A DNA stretch of 64,000 nucleotides, taken from the NCBI RefSeq assembly GCF_026427595.1, contig NZ_CP101527.1, forward strand, positions 2,141,501 through 2,205,500, in the 5' to 3' direction. Below are positions 42,808-61,113 of this stretch, one piece after another (the first letter of the stretch is position 1; the number at the start of each line of letters is the position of its first letter). A program made the translations under genes and the position numbers. The stretch is from Alkalimarinus sediminis (GTDB taxonomy: Bacteria; Pseudomonadota; Gammaproteobacteria; Pseudomonadales; Oleiphilaceae). The notes beneath the pieces are model-generated. The model worked only from the letters and a program-made list of their open reading frames with translations, ran no database searches and had not been told where the DNA came from.

Positions 42808-42950
42808 GTTGAACCTAAAAATTGAAATATGGTGCTCTATCTTTAGAGCGTTGAGCGCATTCTACTTTAAATAATGGTACTAGGCATAGTTTAAGGGGCG
42901 CGGACTATAAAGGGTAAGGGGGTGATTGTCGAGCAATGTATAGCAAGTAC

Positions 42951-43256
42951 TCATAATTGTTTAACATAGTCTGCAATCAACTCTGCTTCTTGAGTACTCA
43001 TGTTCGGGTACAGTGGCATTTTGCGTTTATCATTGGCCTCTATTCGAATTTTATGTGCAATTTGCCATATCGAAAGCGAGCTCTGTTTATTGGGTGGCAC
43101 ACCTTTTAAGAAGTTTCCTTTGCCTGTTTCAGCGTGACAGCCCGCGCAGTGATGATCAAACAACTGCTTGCCGGTTATCAACTCTGGGTGGTTATGGGTA
43201 TCTTTATCACACCCGCTCAATCCCGCTAGCGCTATCAATAGAAGTGTGCGCCTCAT
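42951..43256 (-). CDS. Cytochrome c lipoprotein
   Basis: From ATG 43256 the protein is 101 residues with a lipobox signal (IALAGLSGC, Cys16) and one haem motif CAGCH (37-41). KMPLYPNMS near the end supplies the axial methionine. A small class I cytochrome c tethered in the periplasm, for electron transfer. The open frame extends to 43355 but would run into the upstream EAL gene. It starts 16 bases after that gene's stop, so they are probably co-transcribed. Confidence 0.88.
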   Translation of the reverse strand: MRRTLLLIALAGLSGCDKDTHNHPELITGKQLFDHHCAGCHAETGKGNFLKGVPPNKQSSLSIWQIAHKIRIEANDKRKMPLYPNMSTQEAELIADYVKQL

Positions 43257-43272
43257 ATCAGTACTCCAACGT

Positions 43273-44829
43273 TTATGACAACTGTTTTTCATAGTAGTGA
43301 CAGAGTGCATCAAACGGTAGTGGTTTACTAAAAAAATAGCCTTGTATAGTGTCACATTGCAACCGTTTCAGCAGATCAACGGTTTCTTGATCTTCAACCC
43401 CTTCTGCGGTCACCGAGATATTAAGACTATGGGCCATAACAATAGTCGACTTCACTATTTTTGTTTTCTTCGCCGAAATTAGCATATTGGTAATGAAGTC
43501 TTTATCAATTTTTAAGACACTAACCGGCAGTTGGCTTAAATAGGTTAGCGAGGAGTAGTCTTTACCGTAATCATCTAATGATAGTGAAAACCCCATCTCT
43601 ACCAAGGCATCAACACATTGGATTGCCCTTGTAGAGTCGCCCATAAAAGCACTCTCGGTAATCTCAAATTCAAACTCTTCTGGGCTAACATCATATGCTG
43701 AAAGTAATCGTTGAATATCGCTAGGCAACTCTAAGTCTTGAATATTTCTCGAAGAGAGATTAATCGCCATTTGCAGAGTAATGCCCTGCGCTTTTAACGA
43801 GCATTGGTCACGAAAGGCTTTTTCTATGATCATCAAAGTAAATGATTTGATTAATCCTGAGTGCTCAGCGAGCGGCACAAACTCCTCTGGTGAAATAAAA
43901 CCTAGCGTATCATGCTTCCACCGAGCCAACGCTTCAACAGACTCAGCTCTACCTGTTAACAGGTTTACTTTAGGCTGATAGTTTAAATAGATACCCTCTT
44001 TGCTATCTATTGCTTCTTTAAGGTGATTAAACAGCAGGATTCGTCGTTTATTGTTTGGATCTCGATCGGCATCATAAACACAATAACGGGAGGCGGTTTG
44101 GCTAGCACCTCGCATCGCTAACTCTGCTTTTTGGAGTAGTTTAAGAGGGTCTGATTCATGTTGAGGATAGAGAGCTATGCCGATACTGCCTTCAAGCGTA
44201 ATCGGTGCATCATCAAGGCTAATAGTCTTACTTAATGTTAGGTGTATCTTTTCAACAATCTGATAAATATCATCTACATCGGCCAATGGCAGTATGAAGG
44301 CAAACTCTGTGCTTGAAGTACGGCCGAGTGTATCTGACTTTCTTAAATTCAAGCGCAGCCTTAATGCGACTTTTCTTATCACGAGGTCGCCATTTTTGTA
44401 CCCTATAGCATCATTTATCGCCGCCAAGTGATGTATTTTTAATACGATTACGCCATAACTCGACTGGCTTCGCTCGGCGACTAGCGTCTGGTGGTGTAGT
44501 CGATCTTCAAATAATATTCTATTGGGTAAACTAGTCAGAGGGTCATACAGATAATGGCGTTGCATAACCAATTCTGCATGAGAACGATCTTTCAGGCTCT
44601 TAATAATGGGTCGGTATAAAAAGAATAACAGGCATGGCAGTGTAATAGTTGTTAACACAATAGCATTGATAAGGGCGATATAGAGTGGTGATAACCCCGG
44701 AAATATCGCTAAAAAGGTGGTAATAACGATTTCAGCCAAAAAAATCGCAGCAACAACAATAAGGATAAAGTGATTGAGCTTGAGCTCCGGTATACGTTTA
44801 ATATCAGTTGGCTCTCTGCTCGTGAGCAT
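43273..44829 (-). CDS. Membrane GGDEF(degenerate)-EAL protein, probable c-di-GMP phosphodiesterase
   Basis: 518 residues: two N-terminal helices (about 21-41 and 48-70), a GGDEF domain (about 90-250) and an EAL domain (about 265-515). The GGDEF loop is SSTEF, so cyclase activity is unlikely. The EAL domain keeps ESVEALARW, the NLSS Asn, FEITES, the DD of LSLDDYGKDYSS, KIDKDF and AEGVED. DDYGKD departs from the usual DDFGTG in loop 6. c-di-GMP breakdown is expected but may be weak. Confidence 0.88.
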   Translation of the reverse strand: MLTSREPTDIKRIPELKLNHFILIVVAAIFLAEIVITTFLAIFPGLSPLYIALINAIVLTTITLPCLLFFLYRPIIKSLKDRSHAELVMQRHYLYDPLTSLPNRILFEDRLHHQTLVAERSQSSYGVIVLKIHHLAAINDAIGYKNGDLVIRKVALRLRLNLRKSDTLGRTSSTEFAFILPLADVDDIYQIVEKIHLTLSKTISLDDAPITLEGSIGIALYPQHESDPLKLLQKAELAMRGASQTASRYCVYDADRDPNNKRRILLFNHLKEAIDSKEGIYLNYQPKVNLLTGRAESVEALARWKHDTLGFISPEEFVPLAEHSGLIKSFTLMIIEKAFRDQCSLKAQGITLQMAINLSSRNIQDLELPSDIQRLLSAYDVSPEEFEFEITESAFMGDSTRAIQCVDALVEMGFSLSLDDYGKDYSSLTYLSQLPVSVLKIDKDFITNMLISAKKTKIVKSTIVMAHSLNISVTAEGVEDQETVDLLKRLQCDTIQGYFFSKPLPFDALCHYYEKQLS

Positions 44830-45012
44830 TTAAGATCCCTTTGGAGAAAAAACCGTTAAGTTTCCTGATGCTGAATACCGCGTAAGCGATCTATTTTTCT
44901 AACTATTTATAAGTATAGTCAAGAAGTTGATTATTGCGTAAAGGGTTCGTTAGCATTCTTGCGCGGATATTCGTTAAACTACCCCTTTCTATTTTTCTAA
45001 AAGAGTCTATTT

Positions 45013-45708
45013 GTGATTTTTATCCTCGCCTTCATTACTCTGTGCCTGCTGATCTACGGGCCACAAATGTGGATTAAGTATGTCATGAAAAAGCACGGCA
45101 GCGTCCTTAGCGAGCTGCCAGGTACGGGAGGAGAGCTTGCTAAACATTTGATTAACCAGTTCCAACTCAACGGCATTGAAGTCGAACAAACAGCACCTAA
45201 TAGCGATCATTACGACGATACCGATAAAAAGGTTCGGCTCTCTCCTGCTATATTCAATGGTCGCTCCCTTACCGCAATTGCCGTTGCGACCCATGAAGTC
45301 GGTCATGCCATACAGTTCTATCGAAAAGAGAAGATCACGCACTTAAGAAAACGTTATACCCCATTGGCCAAAAAGATAGAGCGTGTCTCTATCGGCATAC
45401 TATTTTCTCTCCCTTTGATCACCGCTATCTTCAAAGTCCCCCATATCGTATTGCTAACTGCATTAATTGGTGCTTTAGGTATGCTATCGGCGGTGCTGGT
45501 TCAGTTAATTGTTTTACCCTTAGAGTGGGATGCGAGCTTTAATAAAGCGCTCCCTATATTAATAGAAGGGCGCTATATCAACCAACAACAAGAAGCTGCG
45601 GTTAGAAGTGTTCTACGTGCTGCAGCATTCACCTATGTGGCCGCAGCGTTGGCAGACATGCTGAGGCTCTGGCGCTGGCTAGCTATTTTACGGGGCGCTA
45701 TTCGTTAG
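45013..45708 (+). CDS. Neutral zinc metallopeptidase, YugP-like
   Basis: 231 residues starting at GTG. Membrane helix at the N-terminus, zinc motif HEVGH (94-98) in VATHEVGHAIQ, then two hydrophobic segments and a helical end (EAAVRSVLRAAAFTYVAAALAD). This is the layout of the YugP/Zn_peptidase_2 membrane protease family. Substrate unknown. Divergent from the EAL gene. Confidence 0.88.
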   Translation: MIFILAFITLCLLIYGPQMWIKYVMKKHGSVLSELPGTGGELAKHLINQFQLNGIEVEQTAPNSDHYDDTDKKVRLSPAIFNGRSLTAIAVATHEVGHAIQFYRKEKITHLRKRYTPLAKKIERVSIGILFSLPLITAIFKVPHIVLLTALIGALGMLSAVLVQLIVLPLEWDASFNKALPILIEGRYINQQQEAAVRSVLRAAAFTYVAAALADMLRLWRWLAILRGAIR

Positions 45709-45828
45709 TCGAAAGCATGCCACACAAAATCGGCTAACGACTATACTAACAGTCTAAAGTGCTCTTGCGACAAAACCGGCGACGCTGATACTTTATATTT
45801 GAAATGAGTCATTTAAAGGTTAACCTAA

Positions 45829-47316
45829 GTGAAGCGAACAATATTTAATCTGTTTAAGGCTACTATATTTAAGTCACTGCAGATCGTTATTAGCAGTGTA
45901 ATAGGCGCGGCTATTCTATATATCTATCTAATGAGCACACGGCCTGACCTGAACCTTTGGCACACCATCAAACTAGATGAAGAATTTACCGCTGAAGACA
46001 AAGCGGTTAGCACGTTCGATGACTACCTGGCATTAGAAAACCGGCTATTCGATCAACTGGAACAAGAGGTCTATGATAAGTCTGCTACCGGCCCACAGTA
46101 TGCTCTCAATCGCTTTGATGCAGGGAGTCTGGCAGACCCAACAAGCTATGCCCGTAATTGGAATAGAAGCTTCATTTTAGCACCTGAACAACCCCGCGGT
46201 GGAGTGTTGTTAGTACATGGGTTATCAGACTCTCCCTATAGTTTGCGAACAGTCGCTCAAGCATTATTTGATCAGGGGTTCTATGTGCTAGGGTTAAGAA
46301 TGCCTGGGCATGGCACTGCCCCCTCTGGCCTTATACATACCAGTTGGCAAGATATGGCGGCTGCCGTTAGGCTTGCAGCCACACATGTTAGCCAAAATAT
46401 AGGCAGTGAAATGCCAATATCTATTGTGGGATACTCAATGGGGGCAGCTCAAGCCGTTAATTACGCTTTAACCGCATTAAAAGATCACGCGCTCCCTCAA
46501 GTTAGCAGCTTAGTCTTAATCTCACCCGCTATTGGTGTTTCTAGTGCAGCATCTCTGGCTGTCTGGCAGTCACGGTTATCGATCATTCCCGGGCTTGAGA
46601 AATTGGCTTGGAATGATATTGGCCCTGAGTATGACCCCTATAAATACAACTCGTTTGCCGTAAATGCAGGCGACCAGATGTATCGACTAACTCAAGCGAT
46701 TAATAAAAAACTATCGCAACTTAATGAAGCAGGACGACAAGGAGAGTTCCCTCGAACATTAGCGATTATGTCTGTTATAGATGCAACCGTCTCTACTCAA
46801 GCCGTTGTCACCCATCTATTCGATAAAGTCGATAACTCTGATAACCAGTTGGTCATTTACGATATCAACCGCAATGAAAGTTATACCCCATTTATCAAAA
46901 AAGACCCTATAGATGACTACCGCCACATATTAAACCACAGCAGCTTAAACTTTAACTTAACCCTCCTTAGCGACCAATCTACCGATACAGACAGACTTGT
47001 TGCCCACAAGTGGGTAAGAGTAAGTGAGAATGGAAACCCAGAAGCGAGCACCCAGCCAACAACCGAATCGACCGATCTGATTTGGCCACGCCATGTATAT
47101 TCGCTATCACATGTGGCACTACCCTTTCCTCCAAATGACCCATTCTACGGTGCCACACCAGAACACTCCAATGGCCTTAACATAGGAAAACTAGAAACAA
47201 AAGGTGAAAAAGGGCTACTGAACATTGCCGCTAGCGACATGCTTCGCCTGCGCTACAACCCGTTTTATAACAATATGCAGAGCACCATGATATCCTTTAT
47301 TGAAAGTGCTCCGTAG
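45829..47316 (+). CDS. Membrane-anchored alpha/beta hydrolase
   Basis: 495 residues from GTG 45829 with AAAGG nine bases upstream. An N-terminal anchor (SLQIVISSVIGAAILYIYLM) is followed by an alpha/beta hydrolase. Features are GVLLVHGLSDSPYSLR (oxyanion region), LRMPGHGTAPSG, nucleophile elbow GYSMG (about 200-204), DATVS as possible acid site, and a late VYSLSHVALPF with a candidate histidine. Probably a lipase or esterase facing the periplasm. Substrate not deducible. Confidence 0.82.
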   Translation: MKRTIFNLFKATIFKSLQIVISSVIGAAILYIYLMSTRPDLNLWHTIKLDEEFTAEDKAVSTFDDYLALENRLFDQLEQEVYDKSATGPQYALNRFDAGSLADPTSYARNWNRSFILAPEQPRGGVLLVHGLSDSPYSLRTVAQALFDQGFYVLGLRMPGHGTAPSGLIHTSWQDMAAAVRLAATHVSQNIGSEMPISIVGYSMGAAQAVNYALTALKDHALPQVSSLVLISPAIGVSSAASLAVWQSRLSIIPGLEKLAWNDIGPEYDPYKYNSFAVNAGDQMYRLTQAINKKLSQLNEAGRQGEFPRTLAIMSVIDATVSTQAVVTHLFDKVDNSDNQLVIYDINRNESYTPFIKKDPIDDYRHILNHSSLNFNLTLLSDQSTDTDRLVAHKWVRVSENGNPEASTQPTTESTDLIWPRHVYSLSHVALPFPPNDPFYGATPEHSNGLNIGKLETKGEKGLLNIAASDMLRLRYNPFYNNMQSTMISFIESAP

Positions 47317-47319
47317 GCA

Positions 47320-48816
47320 TCACCCCTGATTAACAGAGACACGATCACGCCCCTTCTCTTTTGACTCATACATCGCTGCATCAGCGCTGGCAAAGAGACT
47401 ATCTGCGTTATCACTTTCATTGCAAAGCGCTATTCCCACACTAACGGTAATCGCAGTCGGAAAGTCAGCATGCTGAGAGCGCTGCTTTATTTCACTTCGC
47501 ACTTTTTCAGCAAACTTCACAGCACCTTGCTTATGGGTATCCTCTAAAATAACCACAAACTCCTCCCCACCCCAGCGACCCAAAAAGTCTGTCTGCCGCA
47601 TATGTAACGTCAGAATTTCTGCGACTTTTTGTAAGATTTCATCGCCTACCAAGTGACCATATTTATCATTTACCGCTTTAAAATAGTCAATATCAAAAAG
47701 ACAAACAGAGAGAGGCGTATTCTGTCGTTTAAATCGGGCTAGCGCTTGATCAAGCTGATCATTGATCGTTCTTCGATTGGCTAACCCAGTAAGCGGGTCT
47801 GTCCTAGCCTCATATTTGTATTGAACCTCTTCGCTTAAATCGTTGATGATGACGATGCTATGTTTTTCGCCCCCCAACGCATGGGTCGCAATTGAAATAT
47901 TAGCTGGAAAAATATCACCATTTAACTTTTTGCCATAGAACGTTCTATTGCGTTGTGACATCGGCTGAGCTCTGTCTGACGTTTGAAACTCATTGCGCAT
48001 CTGTCGATGCTTTTCTTTTACCGTTGAGGGAACCAAGTCATCAACATTTATATTGTTAATAGCATTTTCAGAAAACCCAAACAGCTTCATCGTTGCGGTA
48101 TTAGCAGATGTAATGACTCCGCTTTCGTTGGCGGTAAAAATCGCATTCGGGGCACAGGAAAATATCAATTCAAGATCTTTAAGCTTCGAGATTAGCTTAT
48201 TATTCACAGAGACAATAAATGAAAACAGAGTGACGCCGATTAATAATAGAACCCCGAGTATAACCAACAATCGGTTAACAACTACCCCATACCCAGCTTG
48301 AGCACCTTCTATAATTTTCATAGGCTTATCTCGGTAGCTGCTGAGAATCACCCTAAACGACTCTATTGCTTTGGTGTCATCAACTTTTACCACCTGATCG
48401 ATAGCGGTAACACTGGCACTGTTACTGACCAACCTCTTGAGTTCAGGTATTTTTGCACGATATTCGCGGATAACCGACCTGATATTTGAAACCTCCTGGG
48501 CGTGCTCAGGGGCTAATTTGAGATATAACTCCAACGAGTGCAACCCCTCGTCAATCTTCGGTTCGACCTTTTGTAAGTAAGCAAAATCTCGACGTATAAC
48601 TGCATTTTTAAAATCATGGATAAATCCACCATAGCCAAAACTGATAATGGCATTGCCTAAATGCTCAGATCTTTCGACCTCTTTTTGAGTATAGGCAATC
48701 CAACTGTGGTGGGTGTCGTTAATGCTCGAATACAGAATGTAAAAAGAAGCCCCCAGAAATAAGACAAATACCAAGGCAAGGCAGTACATATTATTTAATC
48801 TAAGTCGGCGATTCAT
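47320..48816 (-). CDS. PAS-GGDEF diguanylate cyclase
   Basis: 498 residues: TM helix (12-31), periplasmic helical sensor region to about 185, TM helix (about 187-207), PAS domain (about 212-325, IFSCAPNAIFTANESGVITSAN) and GGDEF domain (about 335-495). The loop GGEEF and DIDYFKAVNDKYGH are intact; an upstream RxxD inhibitory site is not obvious. c-di-GMP synthesis is expected. It converges with the hydrolase gene three bases away. Confidence 0.9.
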   Translation of the reverse strand: MNRRLRLNNMYCLALVFVLFLGASFYILYSSINDTHHSWIAYTQKEVERSEHLGNAIISFGYGGFIHDFKNAVIRRDFAYLQKVEPKIDEGLHSLELYLKLAPEHAQEVSNIRSVIREYRAKIPELKRLVSNSASVTAIDQVVKVDDTKAIESFRVILSSYRDKPMKIIEGAQAGYGVVVNRLLVILGVLLLIGVTLFSFIVSVNNKLISKLKDLELIFSCAPNAIFTANESGVITSANTATMKLFGFSENAINNINVDDLVPSTVKEKHRQMRNEFQTSDRAQPMSQRNRTFYGKKLNGDIFPANISIATHALGGEKHSIVIINDLSEEVQYKYEARTDPLTGLANRRTINDQLDQALARFKRQNTPLSVCLFDIDYFKAVNDKYGHLVGDEILQKVAEILTLHMRQTDFLGRWGGEEFVVILEDTHKQGAVKFAEKVRSEIKQRSQHADFPTAITVSVGIALCNESDNADSLFASADAAMYESKEKGRDRVSVNQG

Positions 48817-49081
48817 TCCCTATCGTTCCCTTATCGACACGTTGGCAATGCGTGATTAACCGTAAAGTTGTAGATGCCTGTTTTGATAACAAACTTTAGT
48901 GTAGCAGGCCACAGATTTTATGCTTAACGCAATGGTAGCTACTGCTCTAGAGCTCACTATTTATTGGGTGTAGCGCATTTTCGTTCCTTGTTAATTATCA
49001 AAAGGCTACTAAGCTTATTTCACTATAGAGTGATGATTGATTGGTGCGCTTCTTCTGGAGGCCAATAGTGATGTTTTCGTT

Positions 49082-51118
49082 ATGAAACACCCAAACGGTA
49101 ACGCCTTTATATGTCTCATCGGTTTATCCGCTGCGCTTGCTCACGCAAACGACATTGCGAATACAGATGACCTGTGGACAATGGATATAGAGCAACTTCT
49201 CAAAGTCCAAATAACCTCCGCCTCCCGATTCTCTGAATCGACTCTTACCACTCCCAGCAGCGTAAGCGTTATCAAGAGAGACGATTGGGAAAAGCGAGGA
49301 GCCAGACGCACCTCTGATGCCTTTCAGCACCTTTCCGGCGTGATGGTTTTACCCGCACCAACTGGCGGTAACTCGATTCAAGTTAGAGGGTATGGAACCG
49401 CCTCCGTTAAAGGGAAAGCCACTCTGCTAGATGATGTACCCATCAACAGCTTTGTTTTTGGTAGTGATGTTTTTTCAGTAGATAACATAGAACTAGCGAC
49501 ACTCGAAAGAATCGAGCTAGTTAGAGGCCCCAGCTCCACACTTTATGGCAGCGATGCCTTTCACTCCGCCGTTTCATATAAGACCTGGCAGCCCAATAGT
49601 GGAACAGAGCAATCACAGATTTCAGCAGGCCAGGATGACTATTACCATGGCAGTTTACAATCAAGCCACGCCATCGGAGACGACTGGTTTATGGGCTTAT
49701 CACTTTCAGCATCCCAAGAAGGTGATCAAAACAGCAACTTTGACTATCAATCCCCTGTTAATGGCACCACCCACTCATCTGAACGAGAGCTCAACTGGGA
49801 CTCTCAAACTGCCATCATCCACCTGTTACAAGATCAACACGATGAGAAAGGCTTAACGGCTAGCCTCTACTACTCGGCTAACGACTTTGATGACTTTCAG
49901 GGTGGGGGTAATGCATCATTTCCTTCGTTAGACCGCGATCGTGGTGGGCATGATGGCCGTTTAAGTATGGCGCGCTTAGGTTATAAGTACCCCCTAGCCT
50001 ACGACATTGGTTTTGAAGCAAAACTATATTACTGGCAAATGGAACATAGCCAAGAAGTACTCATTCCATTTTTCACCGACACTATTCTTGAAACAACAGA
50101 ATATGATGAAGACAGAGGGGGCATCTCGGCTATGCTGCGTCAAAACGCAGACTCCATTGCCACTCGTTGGTCGCTTGAAGCCAGCTACGAAGAGCTAGGC
50201 ATTGATAGCAACAGTCAAGCTCGTGTGAGTCAAAACAGCGGCGCAACCATACCGTCCAACCCAGTGGACTATAGCGGTACCAACCAATCTGTTCTTGGCA
50301 TTTCAATGGATGCCAACACAGAAGTGGCATCACAATGGAATGCTATATGGGGAGGCAGATATGATCATTACGACACCTTCGGTAGTGAGTTTAGCCCTCG
50401 TTTGGGAATGATCTATCACCCTGTCGATGATATTGCCTTTAAACTCATTTATAGCGAAGCATTTCGAGCCCCTTCTGCGATTGAATTAAAAGGCTCTTCG
50501 TTTGCCCAGGGCACAACAAACCTGAAACCGGAGATCATGCAAAACATTGAGTTAGGTATGGTAAAAAGCGCTAACCAGTGGGAGTTGGAGTGGATACTCT
50601 TTCACAACCACTGGGATGATCGTATTGTGCTCGTTCCCTTCAATCAAGGGGGGTTTACTTCAAAGTATATGAACTCTGGGGAAAGTGAGTCTACTGGTAG
50701 TGAGATCACATTAAGAAGCCAGCTCGACCGTTGGCTGATAGAAACCAGTGCTTCATATATTTACAGTCAAAACACCGATACAGAACAGTGGCACAGCGTC
50801 TTTCCTAAACTAATTGTAAATGTTGGTATTGGCTATAGTTGGCCGGTGCAACAGGTGGAGCTATTTGTCACCAACCGCTATCAAGACCATGCATATACCG
50901 GTGACCAGTCACTACCTCCTTTTGCAAAAACCGACGCCCCCGCCTATTTCAGAACAGATTTAACGATAAACAAATCATTTAAAGAGAATTGGGAGGTTGG
51001 CATCTCAGTTAGAAATATATTTGATCGAGATAACGTATTGCCATCTCTAGCTAACAGCTATAACGGAGTACCAGATATTGATTTTGACGCTGCGATGACA
51101 CTGCGATACAAGCGTTGA
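49082..51118 (+). CDS. TonB-dependent outer-membrane receptor
   Basis: 678 residues from ATG 49082 (signal peptide MKHPNGNAFICLIGLSAALAHA); the frame opens at 49037. The N-terminal MDIEQLLKVQITSASR region and plug domain (SVIKRDDWEKRGARRTSDAF, QVRGYG, LERIELVRGPSSTLYGSDAF) are clear. A 22-strand-type barrel follows (FSPRLGMIYHPVDDIAFKLIYSEAFRAPS; VRNIFDRDNVLPS). The barrel ends LRYKR, not in an aromatic residue. It should import an unknown ligand using TonB energy. It leads a same-strand group with an acyltransferase, YfiR and a GGDEF-EAL protein. Confidence 0.92.
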   Translation: MKHPNGNAFICLIGLSAALAHANDIANTDDLWTMDIEQLLKVQITSASRFSESTLTTPSSVSVIKRDDWEKRGARRTSDAFQHLSGVMVLPAPTGGNSIQVRGYGTASVKGKATLLDDVPINSFVFGSDVFSVDNIELATLERIELVRGPSSTLYGSDAFHSAVSYKTWQPNSGTEQSQISAGQDDYYHGSLQSSHAIGDDWFMGLSLSASQEGDQNSNFDYQSPVNGTTHSSERELNWDSQTAIIHLLQDQHDEKGLTASLYYSANDFDDFQGGGNASFPSLDRDRGGHDGRLSMARLGYKYPLAYDIGFEAKLYYWQMEHSQEVLIPFFTDTILETTEYDEDRGGISAMLRQNADSIATRWSLEASYEELGIDSNSQARVSQNSGATIPSNPVDYSGTNQSVLGISMDANTEVASQWNAIWGGRYDHYDTFGSEFSPRLGMIYHPVDDIAFKLIYSEAFRAPSAIELKGSSFAQGTTNLKPEIMQNIELGMVKSANQWELEWILFHNHWDDRIVLVPFNQGGFTSKYMNSGESESTGSEITLRSQLDRWLIETSASYIYSQNTDTEQWHSVFPKLIVNVGIGYSWPVQQVELFVTNRYQDHAYTGDQSLPPFAKTDAPAYFRTDLTINKSFKENWEVGISVRNIFDRDNVLPSLANSYNGVPDIDFDAAMTLRYKR

Positions 51119-51173
51119 CCAGCGATTTTTATATAACAATTATAACAGCCCAATCGAAGATGGAGAAAGGCTC

Positions 51174-51935
51174 ATGGGTTCAGCTATCCAGAGTGACGTT
51201 TCAAACAACATCCTGATACAAGGGTTTAAGCAGTACTTTGATATTCAGCGAGCAGAAAGTCCCGATGTCCTCAAAGAGGTCTATCGAATACGCTATGGCG
51301 TGTATTGCAAAGAGTTTGGTTTTGACTTACCTAGCCATCGTGGAGAAGAGAGAGATGAGTTTGATCGATACTCCAACCACTGCCTCCTCACCCATAAAGA
51401 AACAGGCAAAAAAGTTGGCTGCATTCGTGTTATCTCACTCCCAAAAACGAACCCCCAAATGGAGCTGCCATTTCTTACTCATTGTGCAGATTCACTCTAC
51501 CGAGATCAGATAGACCCAGATAGCATTGACCCCGACGAAGTATGCGAGATATCCAGAGTAGCGGTAGTTTCTGAGTTTAGACGCCGTCCAGGTGAGAAAT
51601 CATCAAAAGATGGCCTTACTGGCAACTTAAAAGTAAGCAACGAGGAGATAGAGCAAACTCGGCGCTTCCCCTATATTGCACCCAGTCTATATTTAGCCGC
51701 TGGCGCTCTATTCTTAGCGAGCCATAAAAAACAGATTTTTGTCGCGACCGAACCTCGCTTAGTCAGAAGCTTGTCGATGCTAGGTTTCAGATTTCATCAG
51801 GCCAGTGAACTAACTGATTACCACGGTCAAAGGGCCGTCTATTATTTTAGCCGTAAGTCTATTCAAGAGGATATAGCCGCTATGCCAGCGCACCTGAATG
51901 GTTTTTACCACTATATTGAAAGCCAGGTCACCTAA
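51174..51935 (+). CDS. PEP-CTERM/exosortase-associated acyltransferase (N-acyl amino acid synthase-like)
   Basis: 253 residues, 55 bases after the receptor gene, with GGAGAAAGG before the ATG. The segments VYRIRYGVYCKEFGFD, DEFDRYSNHCLLTH, CEISRVAVVSEFRRRPGE and FVATEPRLVRSLSMLGFRF fit the exosortase-associated acyltransferase family. That family shares the GNAT/autoinducer-synthase fold and makes N-acyl amino acids. It is normally found in exosortase/exopolysaccharide loci, and no exosortase or PEP-CTERM protein is seen here. In this setting it may make a small acylated signal or lipid. Confidence 0.82.
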   Translation: MGSAIQSDVSNNILIQGFKQYFDIQRAESPDVLKEVYRIRYGVYCKEFGFDLPSHRGEERDEFDRYSNHCLLTHKETGKKVGCIRVISLPKTNPQMELPFLTHCADSLYRDQIDPDSIDPDEVCEISRVAVVSEFRRRPGEKSSKDGLTGNLKVSNEEIEQTRRFPYIAPSLYLAAGALFLASHKKQIFVATEPRLVRSLSMLGFRFHQASELTDYHGQRAVYYFSRKSIQEDIAAMPAHLNGFYHYIESQVT

Positions 51936-52010
51936 TCTGACTTTGGCTTTAGGTGTCAGTCATATGCCCTCTATATAACAGAACCAATGATTAAGTTAGT
52001 AGGTCTAGGG

Positions 52011-52565
52011 ATGATAAAACGCATATATCACACCTGCGTTCATACAAAGTTGCGAGTACTTCTTGTGACTCTTGTGTTCTGTTGTCCTTTTACTTTTGCA
52101 AAATCAGCCGTTACACCAATCGGAGTTCAGGCAGCATTAATTAAAAACTTCACACATTTGATCACTTGGCCCAAAAACGATCAGAGAAACGCAGGCCCAA
52201 CATTTAACATCTGCGTCTACAACTCCGACTCCCTGCTTGAGCAATTTGAAAATATTTTTTCTGGCAAAGTCATCAAAGGTAAAGCAACTACGATCATCAA
52301 CATCAATTCATCAGACCTCAGTAATTGTGACCTGGCCTATGTTGCCGGGCCTTCAGATAAGCCCATTAAATCACTGCTAGCAAGTGCTCAGGCATTAGGG
52401 GTGCTGACGATTAGTTCAAGTAATGGTTATGGCGAACAAGGAGTCCATATTAATTTTTTTGAGCGGGGCAACAACATTGCCTTTGAATTGAATAAAAAAA
52501 CACTGGATAACGCGGGGTTTGAAGTGAGCACCCAACTCTTTCGTTACGCCAAAATAGTACAGTGA
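52011..52565 (+). CDS. yfiR: YfiR family periplasmic regulator
   Basis: 184 residues from ATG 52011 (signal KLRVLLVTLVFCCPFTFA); ATG 51987 is less likely. The mature part matches YfiR/DUF4154 in AALIKNFTHLITWPK, FNICVYNSDSLL, the cysteine in LSNCDLAYV, LTISSSNGYGEQGVHINFF and the RYAKIV end. YfiR binds and represses the periplasmic domain of the diguanylate cyclase YfiN. The next gene, seven bases on, has that type of sensor domain, so the pair is likely functional. Confidence 0.85.
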   Translation: MIKRIYHTCVHTKLRVLLVTLVFCCPFTFAKSAVTPIGVQAALIKNFTHLITWPKNDQRNAGPTFNICVYNSDSLLEQFENIFSGKVIKGKATTIININSSDLSNCDLAYVAGPSDKPIKSLLASAQALGVLTISSSNGYGEQGVHINFFERGNNIAFELNKKTLDNAGFEVSTQLFRYAKIVQ

Positions 52566-52572
52566 CGCTACC

Positions 52573-54606
52573 ATGCTTCAGAGACTGACGCTAAAGAATA
52601 AACTAACGCTTATCATAACGTTAGTTACAACGGTCACCTTGATGTTCGGTTTTGCGGGCATTACGTTCTCTTATTACAACGAAAATAAGAGCAGCCTGAT
52701 TGAAGGGCTCGAAAAAGAAGCCAAGCTCATCGCCAGTTACAGCCAGGTGCATGTGGCACTCAACTTTAATGATGAACTTAAAACTATTCTTGAAGACGTG
52801 CTAATTCCTGGCGCTCATACCAGTGCAGTCTGTGACTTTGACCCTCAACAAGTTATTCAAGTAGATGCCGGCGGTGGTGAAATTACTGATACAAGTGTCT
52901 GCAAAAGTAGTGAAAGTGTATGGGGCAACCAATGGCTATGGGTCACACAACCCGTATTAGATGTCTCGGGAGAAGAGATTGGCGCTGTGGTATTCAAAGT
53001 TTCACTTGAGGCGTTTTATAGTGGCGTAAGAACATTTGTCTATTGGGCCCTGGTATTCACCCTGCTATCTATCGCCTTCAGTTATGCCTTAGCTAAACGG
53101 CTACAATCCTATATTTCTAAACCCATTCTAGACCTCGAAGCCGCTACCAATCAGGTGTGCAAGGCAGAAAATTATGATTTTAGGGTACCCGTAAAAAGTC
53201 AGGATGAAATAGGCAGCCTAAGCCACTCATTTAACCAAATGCTAGAGGCTATGGAGCAACGTTTAGTTGAACGTAACAACGCTATCAAAGAGATGCATGT
53301 TCTAGCCAACTATGACTCACTCACACGCTTACCCAACCGAGCACTCTGCCTAGACCGCCTAACTCAAGCAATCGCGAAAGTAGGCAGAGGTGACAATAAA
53401 GTCGCACTGATGTTTATTGACCTCGATAACTTTAAAGACGTTAATGACTATCTGGGCCATAACGCCGGTGACATTCTCCTCATAGAAGTCAGCAAAAGTC
53501 TCAGCAGCGCTCTCAGAGAGGGGGATACACTAGCCCGTCTTGGGGGGGATGAGTTTGTCATCATTCTGACAGATTTCGAGTCTAAAACAGACCTAGCCAA
53601 TGTTGCAGATAAATGTATCTCTGCAATCGCTAAAGAATTTAGCATCATGGAGAACAGCATCACCGCTTCGGCGAGCATAGGCATTGCAGTCTTCCCAGAT
53701 GATGCAGCCACTTCTGTGGAGCTTTTGAAAGCGGCCGATAGTGCCATGTATCAGGCTAAAGAACGTGGTAAAAATGCCTATTATTTTTATGAAGAGCGCA
53801 TCAATGCGATAGTCGCTCGAAAACATACCGTATCAAACGCACTACGGTTTGCACTGAGAAAGAACCAGCTTCACGTTGAGTATCAGCCAGTAGTCAATTT
53901 ATGCTCTGACAAAATAGTGGGGGCTGAAGCACTGATAAGATGGAATCATCCAGAGCTAGGTAAAATATCTCCCGCTGAGTTTATTCCTATAGCGGAAAGT
54001 ACCGGACTCATATTCCCAGTCAGTATATTCGTGATCGAGTCGGTTTGTCGTTTTATTTCTAAATACCGTCACAAACTTGATGATGACTTTTCGGTGGCGC
54101 TGAATCTATCTCCAGCGATTTTAAAGCAAAACTTTCTACTCGATAAAATTAAAATGTATCTCAACCAATATCAGATTCCAGCCAAATATATCTGTTTTGA
54201 AGTCACTGAAAATACGCTAATGAATGAAATGGAGCGGTGTATACAGACTCTTAATGCCTTAAAGCAATTAGGTTCAAAAGTCTCTATTGATGATTTCGGT
54301 ACTGGTTACTCCTCACTCTCATACCTAAGTAAGCTACCGGTAGATAATCTAAAAATAGATCGGTCGTTTATCGATGATATTCTGCATGACACCAATGATA
54401 CAGCCATTACATTGGCCATCATCTCTTTGGCACAAAGCCTAAAGTTAAAGGTCATCGCAGAAGGGGTAGAAAACCAAGACCAACGTTTATTTCTACAACA
54501 ATGTAGCTGCGAATATATTCAGGGTTTTCTGGTCAGCCCATCAAAAACTGATACAGCGTTTATGATGTTTTTGCGAGAGTATAATGAGCACTGCAACACC
54601 CGCTAA
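52573..54606 (+). CDS. YfiN-like CHASE8-HAMP-GGDEF-EAL protein
   Basis: 677 residues: TM1 (11-32), periplasmic CHASE8-like sensor (about 35-155, with cysteines in AVCDFDP and TSVCKSS), TM2 (about 157-175), HAMP (about 177-230), GGDEF (about 250-410; intact RLGGDEFVIIL) and EAL (about 425-670). EAL residues are complete: GAEALIRW, ALNLSP, FEVTEN, DDFGTGYSS, KIDRSF, AEGVEN. Unlike YfiN of Pseudomonas it has an EAL domain, so it may make or break c-di-GMP under YfiR control. Confidence 0.9.
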   Translation: MLQRLTLKNKLTLIITLVTTVTLMFGFAGITFSYYNENKSSLIEGLEKEAKLIASYSQVHVALNFNDELKTILEDVLIPGAHTSAVCDFDPQQVIQVDAGGGEITDTSVCKSSESVWGNQWLWVTQPVLDVSGEEIGAVVFKVSLEAFYSGVRTFVYWALVFTLLSIAFSYALAKRLQSYISKPILDLEAATNQVCKAENYDFRVPVKSQDEIGSLSHSFNQMLEAMEQRLVERNNAIKEMHVLANYDSLTRLPNRALCLDRLTQAIAKVGRGDNKVALMFIDLDNFKDVNDYLGHNAGDILLIEVSKSLSSALREGDTLARLGGDEFVIILTDFESKTDLANVADKCISAIAKEFSIMENSITASASIGIAVFPDDAATSVELLKAADSAMYQAKERGKNAYYFYEERINAIVARKHTVSNALRFALRKNQLHVEYQPVVNLCSDKIVGAEALIRWNHPELGKISPAEFIPIAESTGLIFPVSIFVIESVCRFISKYRHKLDDDFSVALNLSPAILKQNFLLDKIKMYLNQYQIPAKYICFEVTENTLMNEMERCIQTLNALKQLGSKVSIDDFGTGYSSLSYLSKLPVDNLKIDRSFIDDILHDTNDTAITLAIISLAQSLKLKVIAEGVENQDQRLFLQQCSCEYIQGFLVSPSKTDTAFMMFLREYNEHCNTR

Positions 54607-54640
54607 CCCACCTCAATCTTATCTACCCCGCCCCTTATGC

Positions 54641-55384
54641 TTACACTCGTCCAGCTAAGAGAGATTGCGGTACGACCTTTAACAACCGCCCAATCATATT
54701 CCAAGGGTAAACAGGCACGGTCGATTTTTTAACTTTCTTCTCTATCAGGTCAACTAAAATATGCGAGCCTTTTTCAACATCAATCAAAAATGGGCGGCTT
54801 TTCATTTTGTTGTTGATAGGTGTATCAATATACCCGGGATACAAGCACGTAACATCAATAGGCGATTGATGCAGCTCCAACTGCAAAGCGTCCATATAGG
54901 TTGATATCGCCGCTTTAGAAGCACAATAAACACTGGCCCCTGGCAACCCTCTAAATCCTGCCACTGAAGCAATACCTACAATCTGTCCATGCCCCTGCTC
55001 TTTAAACAGTTTAATGGCTGTATCGATGGTGGCCATAGCACCTAGAATATTGGTTTGGATAATAGCGGCATCCTCATCAAACTTGTCACTACCTATATCA
55101 CCGCCACCGCCAATACCCGCATTAGCAACCACAATATCCACTACACCAAACTGTTTGGCCAGCTCAGGAATTACTTTCTGCACAGCTGCTACATCAGTCA
55201 CATCTAGCTTAATGGTTTCAATACGCTGCCCAGGAAATTGCTCCGACAACTCCACTGCTAGTTGATCAATCGACGCTTTTCGACGAGCAGCTAACGCTAG
55301 GTTATACCCTCGCTTGGCAAACTCCTTCGCCATACCTTCGCCAATTCCAGAACTAGCCCCTGTGATAAAAACTGTTTTTGCCAT
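54641..55384 (-). CDS. Short-chain dehydrogenase/reductase
   Basis: 247 residues. Rossmann motif TGASSGIG (8-15), NAGIGGGG, catalytic Ser in GIASVAG and YCASK. NAD(P)-dependent oxidoreductase; substrate unknown. The C-terminal VYPWNMIGRLLKVVPQSLLAG is like fatty-acid or lipid-related SDRs. It is followed on the chromosome by a converging GGDEF-EAL gene and preceded by a coiled-coil gene 18 bases away. Confidence 0.9.
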   Translation of the reverse strand: MAKTVFITGASSGIGEGMAKEFAKRGYNLALAARRKASIDQLAVELSEQFPGQRIETIKLDVTDVAAVQKVIPELAKQFGVVDIVVANAGIGGGGDIGSDKFDEDAAIIQTNILGAMATIDTAIKLFKEQGHGQIVGIASVAGFRGLPGASVYCASKAAISTYMDALQLELHQSPIDVTCLYPGYIDTPINNKMKSRPFLIDVEKGSHILVDLIEKKVKKSTVPVYPWNMIGRLLKVVPQSLLAGRV

Positions 55385-55402
55385 CGTATGCTTTCTCTTA
55401 TT

Positions 55403-56407
55403 TTAATTGAGGTCTAGAATAATCTGATCAGGTACATCCAGTGTATTGCTGTCTCCGGATGTTAAAGGTGCGACTTTTGGTTTCTTCTCAGCTGTTGCAC
55501 TCTTGTCGGCATCGGGCGCTGAAATAGGCTGAGGTGCGATGTTAGGTTGAGAAGCGGCAGTTTTAGACGTGACTGGTTGAACCGCGCTTTTTAAACTTGT
55601 TTGAAGAGACTCATACTCTTTTTTTAGTCGGTCTATTTCACTTTTCTGCTCAACCGATAATGCCCGCAGTCGTTTTAGCTCTTTGTTTTTAGAGAGCAAC
55701 TGCTCGTTAGACTGATTAAGCGTCTGCTCAAGCGCAAAAATATCCCCTTTGATATTCTGATAACGCTTTGTTAATGCATCAAATGCTCGCTTACGGTTTG
55801 CAACCTCTTTCTTGAGCTCCGCATTTTGTTTTTTATTAAGGGCCAACTGCTCCATCTGCTTTTTCATCTTCTTCTCTTTCTCATCAATCAAAGAGAGAGT
55901 CTTTTCTTTTCCTGCGGCAGTGGTGTCTAATGCAGACCTGATAATAGTATTCTCATGTTGTAGCTGTTCATTTTGCGCTTTCACTAAATCTAGGTTGGTT
56001 TTAAGAGCCTCTACCATTTGATTGGTCGTCACCAGTTTTGACGACGACGCCGTTAACTGCTTCTCTGTAAGCGCTGCTGTTTCGGTCAATTCATTATTCT
56101 TCGCTTCTAAACTGTCTAGTGTTTGCTGCAATTGCTCAACAGATTGGCGTAGCCCTCCCTCTTCGCTTTGCAGACGCGCTACATCTTGTGTGGCAGATTG
56201 GGAGTCTAAATAAAACTTAAATGCGCCAAATGCTGCCGCAATGGTCAGCAACAGTAGTAACGCCAACATCCCTCCCATAAAGCGATTACGCTTTTGAAGA
56301 ACATCGATTAACTGTTGAGCGTAGTATTGGCTATCTCTCGAAAACGCGGGTTCTGGTTGTGGCATAGTGGCGTTCTGTTCAATAGAGTCTGGAGTATCTG
56401 GCTGCAT
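55403..56407 (-). CDS. Coiled-coil membrane protein
   Basis: 334 residues. One membrane helix (about 43-67, MGGMLALLLLLTIAAAFGAF) after a cytoplasmic tail; then a long coiled coil (about 70-270) very rich in Gln, Glu, Leu and Lys. A Pro/Ala-rich tail ends in DVPDQIILDLN. No enzyme motif. A structural or scaffold role is a guess. Confidence 0.7.
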   Translation of the reverse strand: MQPDTPDSIEQNATMPQPEPAFSRDSQYYAQQLIDVLQKRNRFMGGMLALLLLLTIAAAFGAFKFYLDSQSATQDVARLQSEEGGLRQSVEQLQQTLDSLEAKNNELTETAALTEKQLTASSSKLVTTNQMVEALKTNLDLVKAQNEQLQHENTIIRSALDTTAAGKEKTLSLIDEKEKKMKKQMEQLALNKKQNAELKKEVANRKRAFDALTKRYQNIKGDIFALEQTLNQSNEQLLSKNKELKRLRALSVEQKSEIDRLKKEYESLQTSLKSAVQPVTSKTAASQPNIAPQPISAPDADKSATAEKKPKVAPLTSGDSNTLDVPDQIILDLN

Positions 56408-56531
56408 AATAGTGTTAGCTTAGCTTTTGAAATGTCAGTAAGTTACGAGTGTTTCTTATACTGAACTATAGCAAAGATGCAGCGCAATTAGAGCTTTTAA
56501 TAAAGAATAGTGATATCTAAGCGAGAAATAA

Positions 56532-56562
56532 GTGAACGTGATCTCATACAAACCACGTTCAC
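56532..56562. terminator. Hairpin downstream of the old yellow enzyme gene
   Basis: GTGAACGTG pairs with CACGTTCAC across a 13-base loop, 27 bases past the stop on the minus strand; T-rich sequence follows only loosely. Confidence 0.45.
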
Positions 56563-56588
56563 AGAGGTTATAAATTTTTGATTAGGCA

Positions 56589-57701
56589 CTAACTCAATGT
56601 CATTAGCGCATCTTTAGTGTAGGGTTTTATCTCGTCCAATTGATTATGTTGTACTTTTTTCAACCACTCAGGGTCCACTAACAGCGCTCTCCCTACCGCA
56701 ACTAAATCAAACTCATTATTGTTCATACGCTCGATTAGCTTATCAATGCCCGTTGGGTTTGCAGGGTTGCGCATATCAAAGTTACCATCGCCCACAAAGT
56801 CCCCATCCAAGCCTACACTACCCACAGTAATCGTTGGCTTATCGGTTAGTTTTTTGGTCCAGCCTGCTAGGTTTAAGTCTGAGCCTGCAAACTCTGGTTC
56901 CCAGAATCGTCGTGTACTGGCATGAAAAATATCCACTCCTGCCTCAACCAAAGGCGTTAAAAACTGCTCTAACTCTTCGGGAGTTTGAGCTAAACGAGCC
57001 TCGTAGTCTTGCTGCTTCCACTGCGAGAAACGAAAAACAATAGAAAAATCCTCGCCAACGGTCGCACGTACAGCTTTAACAATATCAACGCCAAAGCGAA
57101 CACGATTTGTGAGTGAGCCACCGTATTCATCATCCCGCTGGTTAGTGCCCTCCCAGAAAAATTGGTCAATCAAATAGCCGTGAGCGCCATGAATCTCAAC
57201 GCCATCAAACCCCGCCTTTTTGGCATTCAGAGCAGCTTGCGCAAACGCATCTATCACGTCATTGATATCATCTTTACTCATTGCTACACCCGCCTCTTTA
57301 CCCGGTTTGAATAAACCGGAAGGGCTATAACCAGGTACCTCTTTATCAGGGCCAATACCTGCCCGCCGAACCGCACCCACATGCCAGATTTGCGGGATGA
57401 TCTGTCCACCTGCTGCATGCACTTCATCCACTACATGCTTCCACCCAGCTAATGCGTCTTCTCCATGCATAGCGGGCACACGCTCATAACCATTTGCAGC
57501 CTTATGCGGAACCGTCGTACCCTCTGTGATAATTAGCCCAACGCCCGCTTCTGCTCTACGACGATAGTAGGCAGCAACCTCAGGTCCAGGAATATATCCA
57601 GGAGAGAAAGTTCGCGTCATCGGGGCCATGACGACACGGTTACTAAGATTAAGTGACTTATTTGAGAAAGAAGAAAATAGTACGCCTAACGGGTTATTCA
57701 T
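56589..57701 (-). CDS. NADH:flavin oxidoreductase, old yellow enzyme family
   Basis: 370 residues, an FMN-binding TIM barrel. NRVVMAPMTRTF, AEAGVGLIITEGT, the HGAHGYLIDQFFWEGTNQR substrate/flavin loop and LVAVGRALLVDPEW are typical. Reduces activated C=C bonds of enones or xenobiotics. Single gene. Confidence 0.9.
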   Translation of the reverse strand: MNNPLGVLFSSFSNKSLNLSNRVVMAPMTRTFSPGYIPGPEVAAYYRRRAEAGVGLIITEGTTVPHKAANGYERVPAMHGEDALAGWKHVVDEVHAAGGQIIPQIWHVGAVRRAGIGPDKEVPGYSPSGLFKPGKEAGVAMSKDDINDVIDAFAQAALNAKKAGFDGVEIHGAHGYLIDQFFWEGTNQRDDEYGGSLTNRVRFGVDIVKAVRATVGEDFSIVFRFSQWKQQDYEARLAQTPEELEQFLTPLVEAGVDIFHASTRRFWEPEFAGSDLNLAGWTKKLTDKPTITVGSVGLDGDFVGDGNFDMRNPANPTGIDKLIERMNNNEFDLVAVGRALLVDPEWLKKVQHNQLDEIKPYTKDALMTLS

Positions 57702-57960
57702 TCATCACTCCAACAATTTGGGGGGCTTCGATAAAGAGGCTGAAAATTTCTTAGACAGCAGCAAGGCCAATCAATTTTATACTAATGAAGAGTCTATGGC
57801 GTAATAGAGAATAAATCGAATGGACAATTTTTATATTTAACTATAAAAATTATTAATAGTGGAGAGAACGTTACATAAACATATTGAACAGTTTGGCATC
57901 CATAGGTCGAATAAAAACAAGACCTATGGATAGCCGGTAATACGACTTAGTGCGCTTTAA

Positions 57961-59241
57961 TTAACGCTCGATAATCGCTGTAATACCCTGGCCGCCTGCA
58001 GCGCAGATCGAGATCAAACCACGGCCTGAGCCTTTCTCTTCAAGTAGCTTAGCAAGAGTAGAAATAATACGTCCACCAGTTGCCGCAAATGGGTGGCCGG
58101 TAGCCAAACTACTGCCCTTAACGTTCATTTTACTTCGGTCGATAGCACCTAAGGCTTTTTTCAGTCCCAGTTTTTCTTTACAGAAGCTTTCGTCTTCCCA
58201 CGCTTTCAGTGTCGATAACACTTGCGCGGCAAACGCTTCATGTATTTCATAGAAGTCAAAATCCTGAAGCGTCAAGCCTGCTTTTTCAAGCATTCTAGGT
58301 ACAGCATAAGCAGGCGCCATTAATAGCCCCTCTTTCTTGTCAACAAAATCAACCGCTGCGACTTCAGAAAACGTTAAGTATGCACGAATAGGCAATCCAC
58401 GCTCTTTTGCCCACTCTTCACTGGCTAACAGAACACAAGATGCACCATCGGTTAAGTTGGTACTGTTACCCGCCGTCATTGTGCCTTTTTCGCGGTCAAA
58501 ACATGGCTTTAACGAGGCTAACTTTTCGATAGTGGTATCTGGGCGCAATACATTATCTTTTTCAAGACCCGCTAATGGCGTAATCAGGTCATCAAAAAAG
58601 CCTTCTTCATAGGCTTTGGCAAGGTTCTGGTGACTATTCCATGCCAACTGATCTTGCTCATCACGAGCTATTTGCCACTCATGAGCGGTAATCTGACAGT
58701 GATCCCCCATCGACAACCCTGTTCGCGGCTCGCCGTTCTCAGGGATCAGAGGTGCCAAGAAACCAGGGCGGAAACGCGAAATAATCTTTAAGCGATCGCC
58801 ATTCGTTTTGGCTCGATTTAGATCAAGAAGCATCTCTCGCAGGCCATCACTTAGGCCGATAGGTGCATCTGAAGTCGTATCCGAACCACCCGCTATACCG
58901 CATTCGATCTGACCCAATGCAATTTTATTTGCAACCAGCACTGCAGCCTCTAAGCCAGTGCCACACGCTTGCTGTACATCATAAGCGGGAGTTTCGGGAG
59001 CAAGGCCAGAGCTAAGTGTACACTCTCGCGCTAGGTTAAAATCTCGTGAGTGCTTGATAACTGCACCTGCTGCGACTTCTCCAAGCCTTTCGCCTTGCAA
59101 GTTATAACGGTCGACCAAACCACGTAGAGCTGCTGTTAGAAGCTCCTGATTGCTTAGCTTTGAATAAACGGTGTTGGAGCGAGCAAATGGGATTCGGTTT
59201 CCGCCAATAATGGCGACTTTACGTATGGTTTGCGCAGTCAT
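57961..59241 (-). CDS. Acetyl-CoA C-acyltransferase (FadI-type thiolase)
   Basis: 426 residues. Active-site Cys93 in QQACGTGLEAA, His in YEIHEAFAAQ, and the second Cys in SICAAGGQG. Long form like FadI, which cleaves 3-ketoacyl-CoA in beta-oxidation; condensation of acetyl-CoA is also possible. It is divergent from the FabG-type gene over 346 bp, suggesting shared control in acyl-CoA metabolism. Confidence 0.9.
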   Translation of the reverse strand: MTAQTIRKVAIIGGNRIPFARSNTVYSKLSNQELLTAALRGLVDRYNLQGERLGEVAAGAVIKHSRDFNLARECTLSSGLAPETPAYDVQQACGTGLEAAVLVANKIALGQIECGIAGGSDTTSDAPIGLSDGLREMLLDLNRAKTNGDRLKIISRFRPGFLAPLIPENGEPRTGLSMGDHCQITAHEWQIARDEQDQLAWNSHQNLAKAYEEGFFDDLITPLAGLEKDNVLRPDTTIEKLASLKPCFDREKGTMTAGNSTNLTDGASCVLLASEEWAKERGLPIRAYLTFSEVAAVDFVDKKEGLLMAPAYAVPRMLEKAGLTLQDFDFYEIHEAFAAQVLSTLKAWEDESFCKEKLGLKKALGAIDRSKMNVKGSSLATGHPFAATGGRIISTLAKLLEEKGSGRGLISICAAGGQGITAIIER

Positions 59242-59587
59242 TAAAATAATCCTTATTACAAATGGTGTGACACGTTAATGAAAATCATAAAACAGAGTTG
59301 TAGAAATCACTTGGTACAGTGTGAAAAATTATTTATTACTAGTTAGAAATATCATTCAACACACTGAACTGCCACGGTAGTTAATCGGTAGACACTGTAA
59401 CTCTGTTCAGATCTTTGGCATTGGCGCAACTGACAATCAGCAATTTGTAGTTGGTCAATCAAACAACTGTTTTATTTTGATTAGATAAGCATCACAATGG
59501 AAGCCCAAATTCATTTTTTCATTCCTGAGTCAACTAAACCATCGACTTCAGGGGGGCTTATATCGTACTCAACAAAAGGGATTCAGC
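59242..59587. other. 346-bp divergent promoter region between thiolase and FabG genes
   Basis: No gene. It must contain the promoters for both genes; no clear consensus element was found by eye. Confidence 0.6.
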
Positions 59588-61003: not shown

Positions 61004-61030
61004 TATTTGCTAAGAGGCATCTAATAACAA

Positions 61031-61090: not shown

Positions 61091-61113
61091 AGCGATTAAT
61101 GTGCTTACCCAAT

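What the first reader, a model, noticed from the sequence alone, without database searches (positions are those of the whole stretch)
49082..54606. Receptor - acyltransferase - YfiR - GGDEF/EAL cluster: candidate self-signal or lipid-sensing c-di-GMP unit
Four same-strand genes with 55, 75 and 7 bp between them join an outer-membrane TonB receptor, an exosortase-type N-acyl amino acid synthase-like enzyme, a periplasmic YfiR and a YfiN-like GGDEF-EAL protein. YfiR repressing a CHASE8 cyclase is established. The acyltransferase family normally sits in exosortase loci, absent here. I infer that the enzyme may make the ligand the receptor takes up or senses, with YfiR passing the signal to c-di-GMP turnover. 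The receptor's barrel also lacks the usual terminal aromatic residue.
Basis: partly seen in the sequence, partly recalled or inferred. Interest (0 to 1): 0.7.

Follow-up and report, generated by a model that had tools for sequence, protein, structure and literature searches.

The report
Acyltransferase inside a c-di-GMP envelope-sensor operon
Bacteria of one genus keep together four genes - an outer-membrane receptor, an enzyme of a family that makes fatty-acyl amino acids, a periplasmic relay and a maker/breaker of the messenger c-di-GMP - which suggests that a home-made lipid may help control the switch between free and attached life.

Summary
In detail: receptor (TBDR), TIGR03694 acyltransferase (ACYL), YfiR and HAMP-GGDEF-EAL lie in one direction, gaps 55, 51/75 and 7 bases. 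The order is kept in 5 of 5 genus genomes examined, also in G004, whose flanking genes differ, so it is a real unit. It joins two arrangements that also occur apart: TBDR-YfiR-(GGDEF-EAL or kinase) without ACYL in other families, and TBDR-ACYL without YfiR in both sampled genomes of genus g44, whose receptors are the nearest kin of the window's (100/100). An unrelated sensor operon (PBP-like, porin-like, GGDEF-EAL) carries the same enzyme family in 14 of 14 loci of family f36, in genomes without a detected exosortase. 'No exosortase' holds only for the window: the genome has XrtA, PrsT and PrsR 0.8 Mb away, without an acyltransferase there, and a second acyltransferase elsewhere. Best reading: a YfiBNR-like envelope sensor with the receptor in YfiB's place, in which the enzyme's lipid is the receptor's ligand or cargo (inferred). 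Product, ligand, transcript and direction of c-di-GMP change are untested. New variant of a known kind.

The parts
49082..51118 (+). TonB-dependent receptor-like outer-membrane protein (Plug + beta barrel), no C-terminal aromatic residue
   Evidence: PF07715 76.4 bits, PF00593 140 bits; TOL_0244 model 88.3 bits, cut-off 645; orthologues 80, 78, 80, 66%
51174..51935 (+). TIGR03694 acyltransferase, N-acyl amino acid synthase / autoinducer-synthase-like GNAT; no signal peptide seen by eye
   Evidence: 201.3 bits, cut-off 111.95; Acetyltransf_5 59.4, Autoind_synth 33.1, FeeM 28.7, all over cut-off; orthologues 85, 83, 85, 68%
51987..52565 (+). YfiR-like periplasmic protein (DUF4154); likely start ATG 52011
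   Evidence: PF13689 101 bits; weak match to solved YfiR, E 0.044; orthologues 63, 64, 70, 51%
52573..54606 (+). membrane protein with periplasmic sensor region, HAMP, GGDEF and EAL; GGDEF, RxxD I-site and EAL motifs all intact
   Evidence: alignment A4 (R315/D318, GGDEF 324-328, EAL 452-454, invariant in 5 of 5); motif meanings recalled

Best explanation
The four genes form one operon-like unit that couples an outer-membrane receptor to c-di-GMP turnover, with a lipid-making enzyme built in. Shown: the genes, their conserved order in the genus, intact catalytic motifs, low protein divergence, and that receptor+enzyme and receptor+YfiR+signalling protein each also occur as units elsewhere. Inferred: it works like YfiBNR, with the TonB-type receptor in the place of the outer-membrane lipoprotein YfiB. 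The cytoplasmic acyltransferase joins a long acyl chain to an amino acid or a similar amine. The product leaves the cell and is bound or taken up by the receptor; the receptor's state changes YfiR, and YfiR releases or holds the GGDEF-EAL protein. A cell thereby reads a lipid that it and its kin make, and adjusts attachment.
For: Same order in 5 of 5 genus genomes examined; in G004 the four genes match at 67, 68, 54 and 71%, while the other genes of window 42001-62000 find there only family-level GGDEF/EAL matches of 32-39%. ACYL changes as slowly at protein level as TBDR and GGDEF-EAL (dN 0.08-0.25 against 0.11-0.23 and 0.08-0.21; dS saturated in most pairs). TBDR-ACYL pair without YfiR in both sampled genomes of genus g44 (G088; G125); those receptors form one group with the genus receptors, 100/100. 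Receptor-YfiR-GGDEF-EAL without ACYL in G206 and receptor-YfiR-kinase in G614 and G616, so receptor and YfiR belong together too. Parallel case: PBP-like, porin-like, GGDEF-EAL and ACYL in 14 of 14 loci of family f36, 0 of 14 of these genomes with an exosortase match. Published: P. aeruginosa YfiR has a pocket that binds L-Trp, though weakly, Kd 76.9 mM (PMC4887326, section 9 read); two N-acyl amino acid synthases carry a modelled, putative PilZ c-di-GMP-binding domain (PMC4897644, passages).
Against: No product, ligand, transcript or c-di-GMP measurement exists. In g44 the pair stands without YfiR; no GGDEF-EAL gene is adjacent (in G125 a GGDEF-like gene lies about 1.5 kb upstream with an opposite-strand gene between; none in the 10 kb L230 of G088). 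The genome has an XrtA system that could use the enzyme in trans. YfiR pocket residues are not peculiar to ACYL-linked copies. A promoter-like site, 51115-51143, lies in the TBDR-ACYL gap, though such sites are at chance number (13 against 11.6). Among 93 acyltransferases whose surroundings were read only the 5 genus ones have receptor and YfiR beside them, 68 have none of the partners sought. The sister gene of ACYL in the same genomes lies elsewhere without a receptor.
Confidence: 0.42

Rival explanations
1. The enzyme is the output, not the signal source: the receptor-YfiR chain senses an outside compound, and the acyltransferase is co-expressed (or its activity tuned by c-di-GMP) to make a surface-active lipid that changes attachment.
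For: N-acyl amino acid synthases with a modelled PilZ domain suggest control by c-di-GMP (PMC4897644); N-acyl tyrosines of Stieleria alter marine biofilms (PMC7293339, title and abstract start, passages); in f36 the enzyme follows the three sensor genes, and those three also occur without it (3 of 3 readable cases).
Against: No PilZ domain was found in the window enzyme. In g44 the enzyme sits with the receptor and without YfiR or an adjacent GGDEF-EAL gene, which ties it to the receptor rather than to c-di-GMP.
Confidence: 0.3
2. The enzyme serves the XrtA/PEP-CTERM exosortase system in trans, and only its regulation is shared with the sensor genes.
For: TIGR03694 is the exosortase-linked family. 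The genome has XrtA, PrsT and PrsR with no acyltransferase in that fetched 18 kb stretch; 5 of 5 genus and 2 of 2 g44 genomes searched have an exosortase.
Against: 14 of 14 f36 genomes have the enzyme but no exosortase match. The XrtA locus is 0.8 Mb away. A second acyltransferase in the genome could fill that role.
Confidence: 0.16
3. The acyltransferase landed in the operon by chance and stayed; there is no shared function.
For: Receptor-YfiR-signalling sets exist without it; most acyltransferases read (68 of 93) have none of these partners beside them.
Against: Kept in 5 of 5 genomes across a change of surroundings, low dN, receptor-enzyme pair recurring in another genus.
Confidence: 0.08

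Closest known systems
YfiBNR of Pseudomonas aeruginosa
   Same: Periplasmic YfiR-family protein next to an inner-membrane HAMP-GGDEF protein, with an outer-membrane partner gene.
   Different: The outer-membrane partner is a TonB-type receptor, not the lipoprotein YfiB; the signalling protein also has an intact EAL domain; YfiR shows no cysteines at the places of the Cys145-Cys152 pair (alignment; pair named in PMC4887326); an acyltransferase is added.
NCBIfam TOL_0243 / TOL_0244 / 'HK near YfiR-like' set
   Same: TonB-dependent receptor, YfiR-like protein and HAMP sensor protein side by side (association as given by the model names).
   Different: All three scores are under the cut-offs (76/125, 88/645, 94/194); GGDEF-EAL instead of a kinase; acyltransferase inserted.
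PEP-CTERM/exosortase-associated acyltransferase (TIGR03694); [quoted passage not shown]
   Same: Family membership over the cut-off.
   Different: Not in an exosortase locus; sits between a receptor and YfiR.
NAS-PilZ fusions Nas343 and Nas354 (PMC4897644, passages)
   Different: There a putative c-di-GMP-binding domain is fused to the enzyme; here a c-di-GMP-making/breaking sensor is a neighbour gene.

Membership tests
TIGR03694 acyltransferase | Score over the curated cut-off | tested here: met
   201.3 bits against 111.95
TIGR03694 acyltransferase | Location in an exosortase/PEP-CTERM locus | tested here: not met
   Only exosortase over the cut-off at C1:1390554, about 0.8 Mb from the gene; no relative of the four genes in that 18 kb stretch
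N-acyl amino acid synthase | Makes N-acyl amino acids from acyl-ACP | not testable with these tools
   FeeM model 28.7 bits, cut-off 27; best solved relative by sequence is an AHL synthase, E 2e-6; product unknown
AHL synthase (LuxI type) | Score over a curated AHL synthase model | tested here: not met
   NCBIfam 35.0 bits against 292 and 30.7 against 250; the broad Pfam Autoind_synth model is passed, 33.1 against 24
YfiBNR system | YfiR (DUF4154) protein | tested here: met
   PF13689 101 bits; NCBIfam YfiR equivalog not reached, 26.7 against 85
YfiBNR system | YfiN/DgcN: CHASE8-HAMP-GGDEF | tested here: not met
   DgcN model 227.5 bits, cut-off 325; Pfam CHASE8 no match at E 0.5
YfiBNR system | YfiB OmpA-type lipoprotein in the operon | tested here: not met
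   Not among the four genes or the two direct neighbours scanned; not sought elsewhere in the genome
TOL_0243/TOL_0244 receptor-YfiR set | Scores over the NCBIfam cut-offs | tested here: not met
   76/125, 88/645, 94/194
TonB-dependent receptor | Plug and beta-barrel domains | tested here: met
   PF07715 and PF00593 over the cut-offs
TonB-dependent receptor | TonB-driven transport | not testable with these tools
   Needs a tonB mutant or uptake assay

The most novel reading that the evidence does not exclude
A self-made N-acyl amino acid (or related acyl amide) is an extracellular signal read at the outer membrane by its co-evolved TonB-type receptor and passed through YfiR to c-di-GMP, a quorum-like circuit without a LuxR protein; and a second family reached the same design with unrelated sensor parts (PBP-like, porin-like, dCache_3-GGDEF-EAL), without any exosortase.
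Probability: 0.28. Interest if true: 0.87.

Novelty: new variant of a known kind. Interest (0 to 1): 0.58.

Why it matters
[quoted passage not shown] Operons that place such enzymes beside an outer-membrane receptor and a c-di-GMP sensor give a direct, testable role: lipid signal or lipid output of surface attachment. The finding also offers a candidate outer-membrane partner for YfiR-like proteins that lie next to TonB-type receptors, as in G206, G614, G616 and G084.

Tried and rejected
Single-protein scan of genome contigs found one relative: patterns too narrow, so the genome search was used. AlphaFold of the acyltransferase from two sequences gave mean pLDDT 35: not used, no fold search made. 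YfiR pocket: a basic residue at the place of P. aeruginosa Leu166 (mapped by eye) looked special in the genus (Lys), but three kinase-linked YfiRs without ACYL have Arg there and the G206 copy Val: rejected as a signature. Promoter and terminator scans: 13 promoter-like sites against 11.6 in shuffles, one of them (51115-51143) in the TBDR-ACYL gap; 10 terminator-like sites against 4.8 (sd 2.2), more than chance, but none starts in a gap between the four genes; not used as evidence for or against one transcript. That f36 and window acyltransferases were recruited independently: the quick tree puts them apart, but the AU test does not reject one clade (p 0.099), so independence rests on the unrelated sensor parts. 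That the receptor-linked acyltransferases form a clade without the non-linked copies: rejected, p 0.025; both groups were named after the tree was seen, and long branches are in play. Reason for the second acyltransferase's place beside mtnB-mtnD-mtnC: left open. Not every hit was opened; near-duplicate or weak ones, many in family f1, were left. Nine literature searches were made; by the listed titles and abstract starts (capped lists: 10 of 36, 12 of 53, 6 of 31, 15 of 17) none describes this arrangement; three papers were opened. The library holds open-licence papers only.
Full report
Observation. The window is bases 2141501-2205500 of a single-contig 4.23 Mb genome. The four genes are present as described and match Plug/barrel, TIGR03694, DUF4154 and HAMP-GGDEF-EAL models over the curated cut-offs. 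The GGDEF motif, its RxxD site and the EAL motif are intact and invariant in 5 of 5 orthologues (motif meanings recalled). Solved relatives by sequence are AHL synthases for ACYL (E 2e-6) and, weakly, YfiR for YfiR (E 0.044).

Conservation. All 5 genus genomes examined (G000-G004) carry the same four genes in the same order and direction. In G001-G003 neighbours are shared as well. In G004 the four match at 67, 68, 54 and 71%, while the other genes of window 42001-62000 find in the fetched 18 kb only GGDEF/EAL family matches of 32-39%. The unit therefore holds together independently of its place. Nonsynonymous distances are similar for ACYL, TBDR and GGDEF-EAL and larger for YfiR; synonymous sites are saturated in most pairs.

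Two arrangements that occur apart. Searches in 390 order and 369 class genomes and reading of fetched surroundings show: (a) receptor-YfiR-GGDEF-EAL without acyltransferase in G206, receptor-YfiR-kinase (with CHASE8) in G614 and G616, and YfiR-kinase-receptor in G084; (b) receptor-acyltransferase without YfiR in G088 and G125, the two sampled genomes of genus g44. In G125 a GGDEF-like gene lies about 1.5 kb upstream, not adjacent; in the 10 kb upstream stretch of G088 none was found. In the receptor tree of 32 rows the seven acyltransferase-linked receptors (one of them partial, at a contig end) are one group, 100/100. In the acyltransferase tree of 75 rows the genus copies are sister to a second copy in the same genomes (91) and then to g44 copies (88) (quick method; the program warned of long branches, among them a g44 pair). 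A group of only the receptor-linked copies is rejected, p 0.025, so one copy probably left or never had the receptor. Of 93 distinct acyltransferases in loci over 5 kb, 5 have receptor plus YfiR beside them (all in the genus, the window counted as L135), 2 a receptor, 15 a GGDEF/EAL gene, 3 another acyltransferase and 68 none of these (same strand, within 200 bases; shorter loci, copies under 200 aa and weak matches were left out, and not every search hit was opened).

A parallel operon. In family f36, all 14 acyltransferase loci that passed E 1e-20 among 390 order genomes have the order PBP-like protein, porin-like protein, GGDEF-EAL protein, acyltransferase on one strand. In L128 a further GGDEF/EAL gene follows, and in L055 the GGDEF-EAL gene is split between two frames. 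Domains were tested in few copies: dCache_3-PAS-GGDEF-EAL in L125 and L116; PBP and porin labels rest on matches under Pfam's cut-offs in L125 (and L119 for the porin), with none in L116; the rest is by similarity to L125. None of these 14 genomes has an exosortase match at E 0.001. The enzyme scores 166 bits on TIGR03694 (L125). A porin search of 346 order genomes found 11 f36 genomes, all among the 14, and 4 genomes of other families; in 3 of these 4 the three sensor genes are followed by no acyltransferase, in the fourth the contig ends. So here too the enzyme looks like an addition to a finished sensor.

Exosortase. The genome has one exosortase over the cut-off, 0.8 Mb from the unit, of type XrtA, with PrsT and PrsR beside it and a 237-aa protein whose C-terminus looks PEP-CTERM-like (by eye; no NCBIfam match). 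No relative of the four genes is in that stretch. The second acyltransferase of the genome, at 684717, lies divergent from methionine-salvage genes. Use of the window enzyme by XrtA in trans cannot be excluded.

Mechanism. By analogy with YfiBNR (established), YfiR holds the inner-membrane protein and an outer-membrane partner relieves it. Here the receptor takes the partner's position (inferred from gene order in several families). P. aeruginosa YfiR binds L-Trp and vitamin B6 in the pocket that accepts YfiB Phe57, with Kd of 76.9 and 35.2 mM (PMC4887326, section 9). An acyl amino acid could bind there, but pocket residues are not peculiar to ACYL-linked YfiRs. The stronger evolutionary tie is receptor to enzyme, so ligand or cargo of the receptor is the preferred guess. 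An export route for the product, the product itself and the direction of c-di-GMP change are unknown; with intact GGDEF and EAL, either sign is possible. Whether the four genes share one transcript is untested; a promoter-like site in the TBDR-ACYL gap leaves room for a second start.

Literature. N-acyl amino acid synthases with a modelled PilZ domain are known, with a proposed but undetailed control by c-di-GMP (PMC4897644, passages). Stieleriacines, N-acyl tyrosines, alter marine biofilms and their genes lie near PEP-CTERM genes (PMC7293339, abstract start, passages). The paper linking such enzymes to exosortases (Craig 2011) is not held and is known here from citations. The listings of searches (titles and abstract starts, some capped) show no account of the operons described here.

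Verdict.

Noticed in passing
L116-L120, L125-L128, L130, L055, L227-L229 (family f36): PBP-like, porin-like, GGDEF-EAL and TIGR03694-type acyltransferase in one order in 14 of 14 loci, in genomes without an exosortase match.
   Followed up: yes
L043 8655-9425 (genome 684717-685373): Second acyltransferase of the genome, divergent from mtnB, mtnD and mtnC methionine-salvage genes; similar arrangement by gene sizes in L047 and L049, not in L051.
   Followed up: partly
L042 7829-17328: XrtA exosortase with PrsT and PrsR but no acyltransferase in the fetched stretch.
   Followed up: partly
window 43273-44829 (-) and 47320-48816 (-): Two further c-di-GMP-type genes just upstream: the second has PAS and GGDEF, the first resembles the GGDEF-EAL gene by BLAST only; three such genes lie within 11.3 kb.
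   Followed up: no
L104 2224-2751 and L230 907-1386: A small gene of untested type upstream of the receptor is about 63% identical in both g44 genomes.
   Followed up: no
L055 5457-8245: The GGDEF-EAL gene of this f36 locus is split between two reading frames; left as it is.
   Followed up: no
L172 8471-11440 and L207 9409-12129: Large proteins (989 and 906 aa) with a YfiR-like match on the strand opposite to a related receptor.
   Followed up: no
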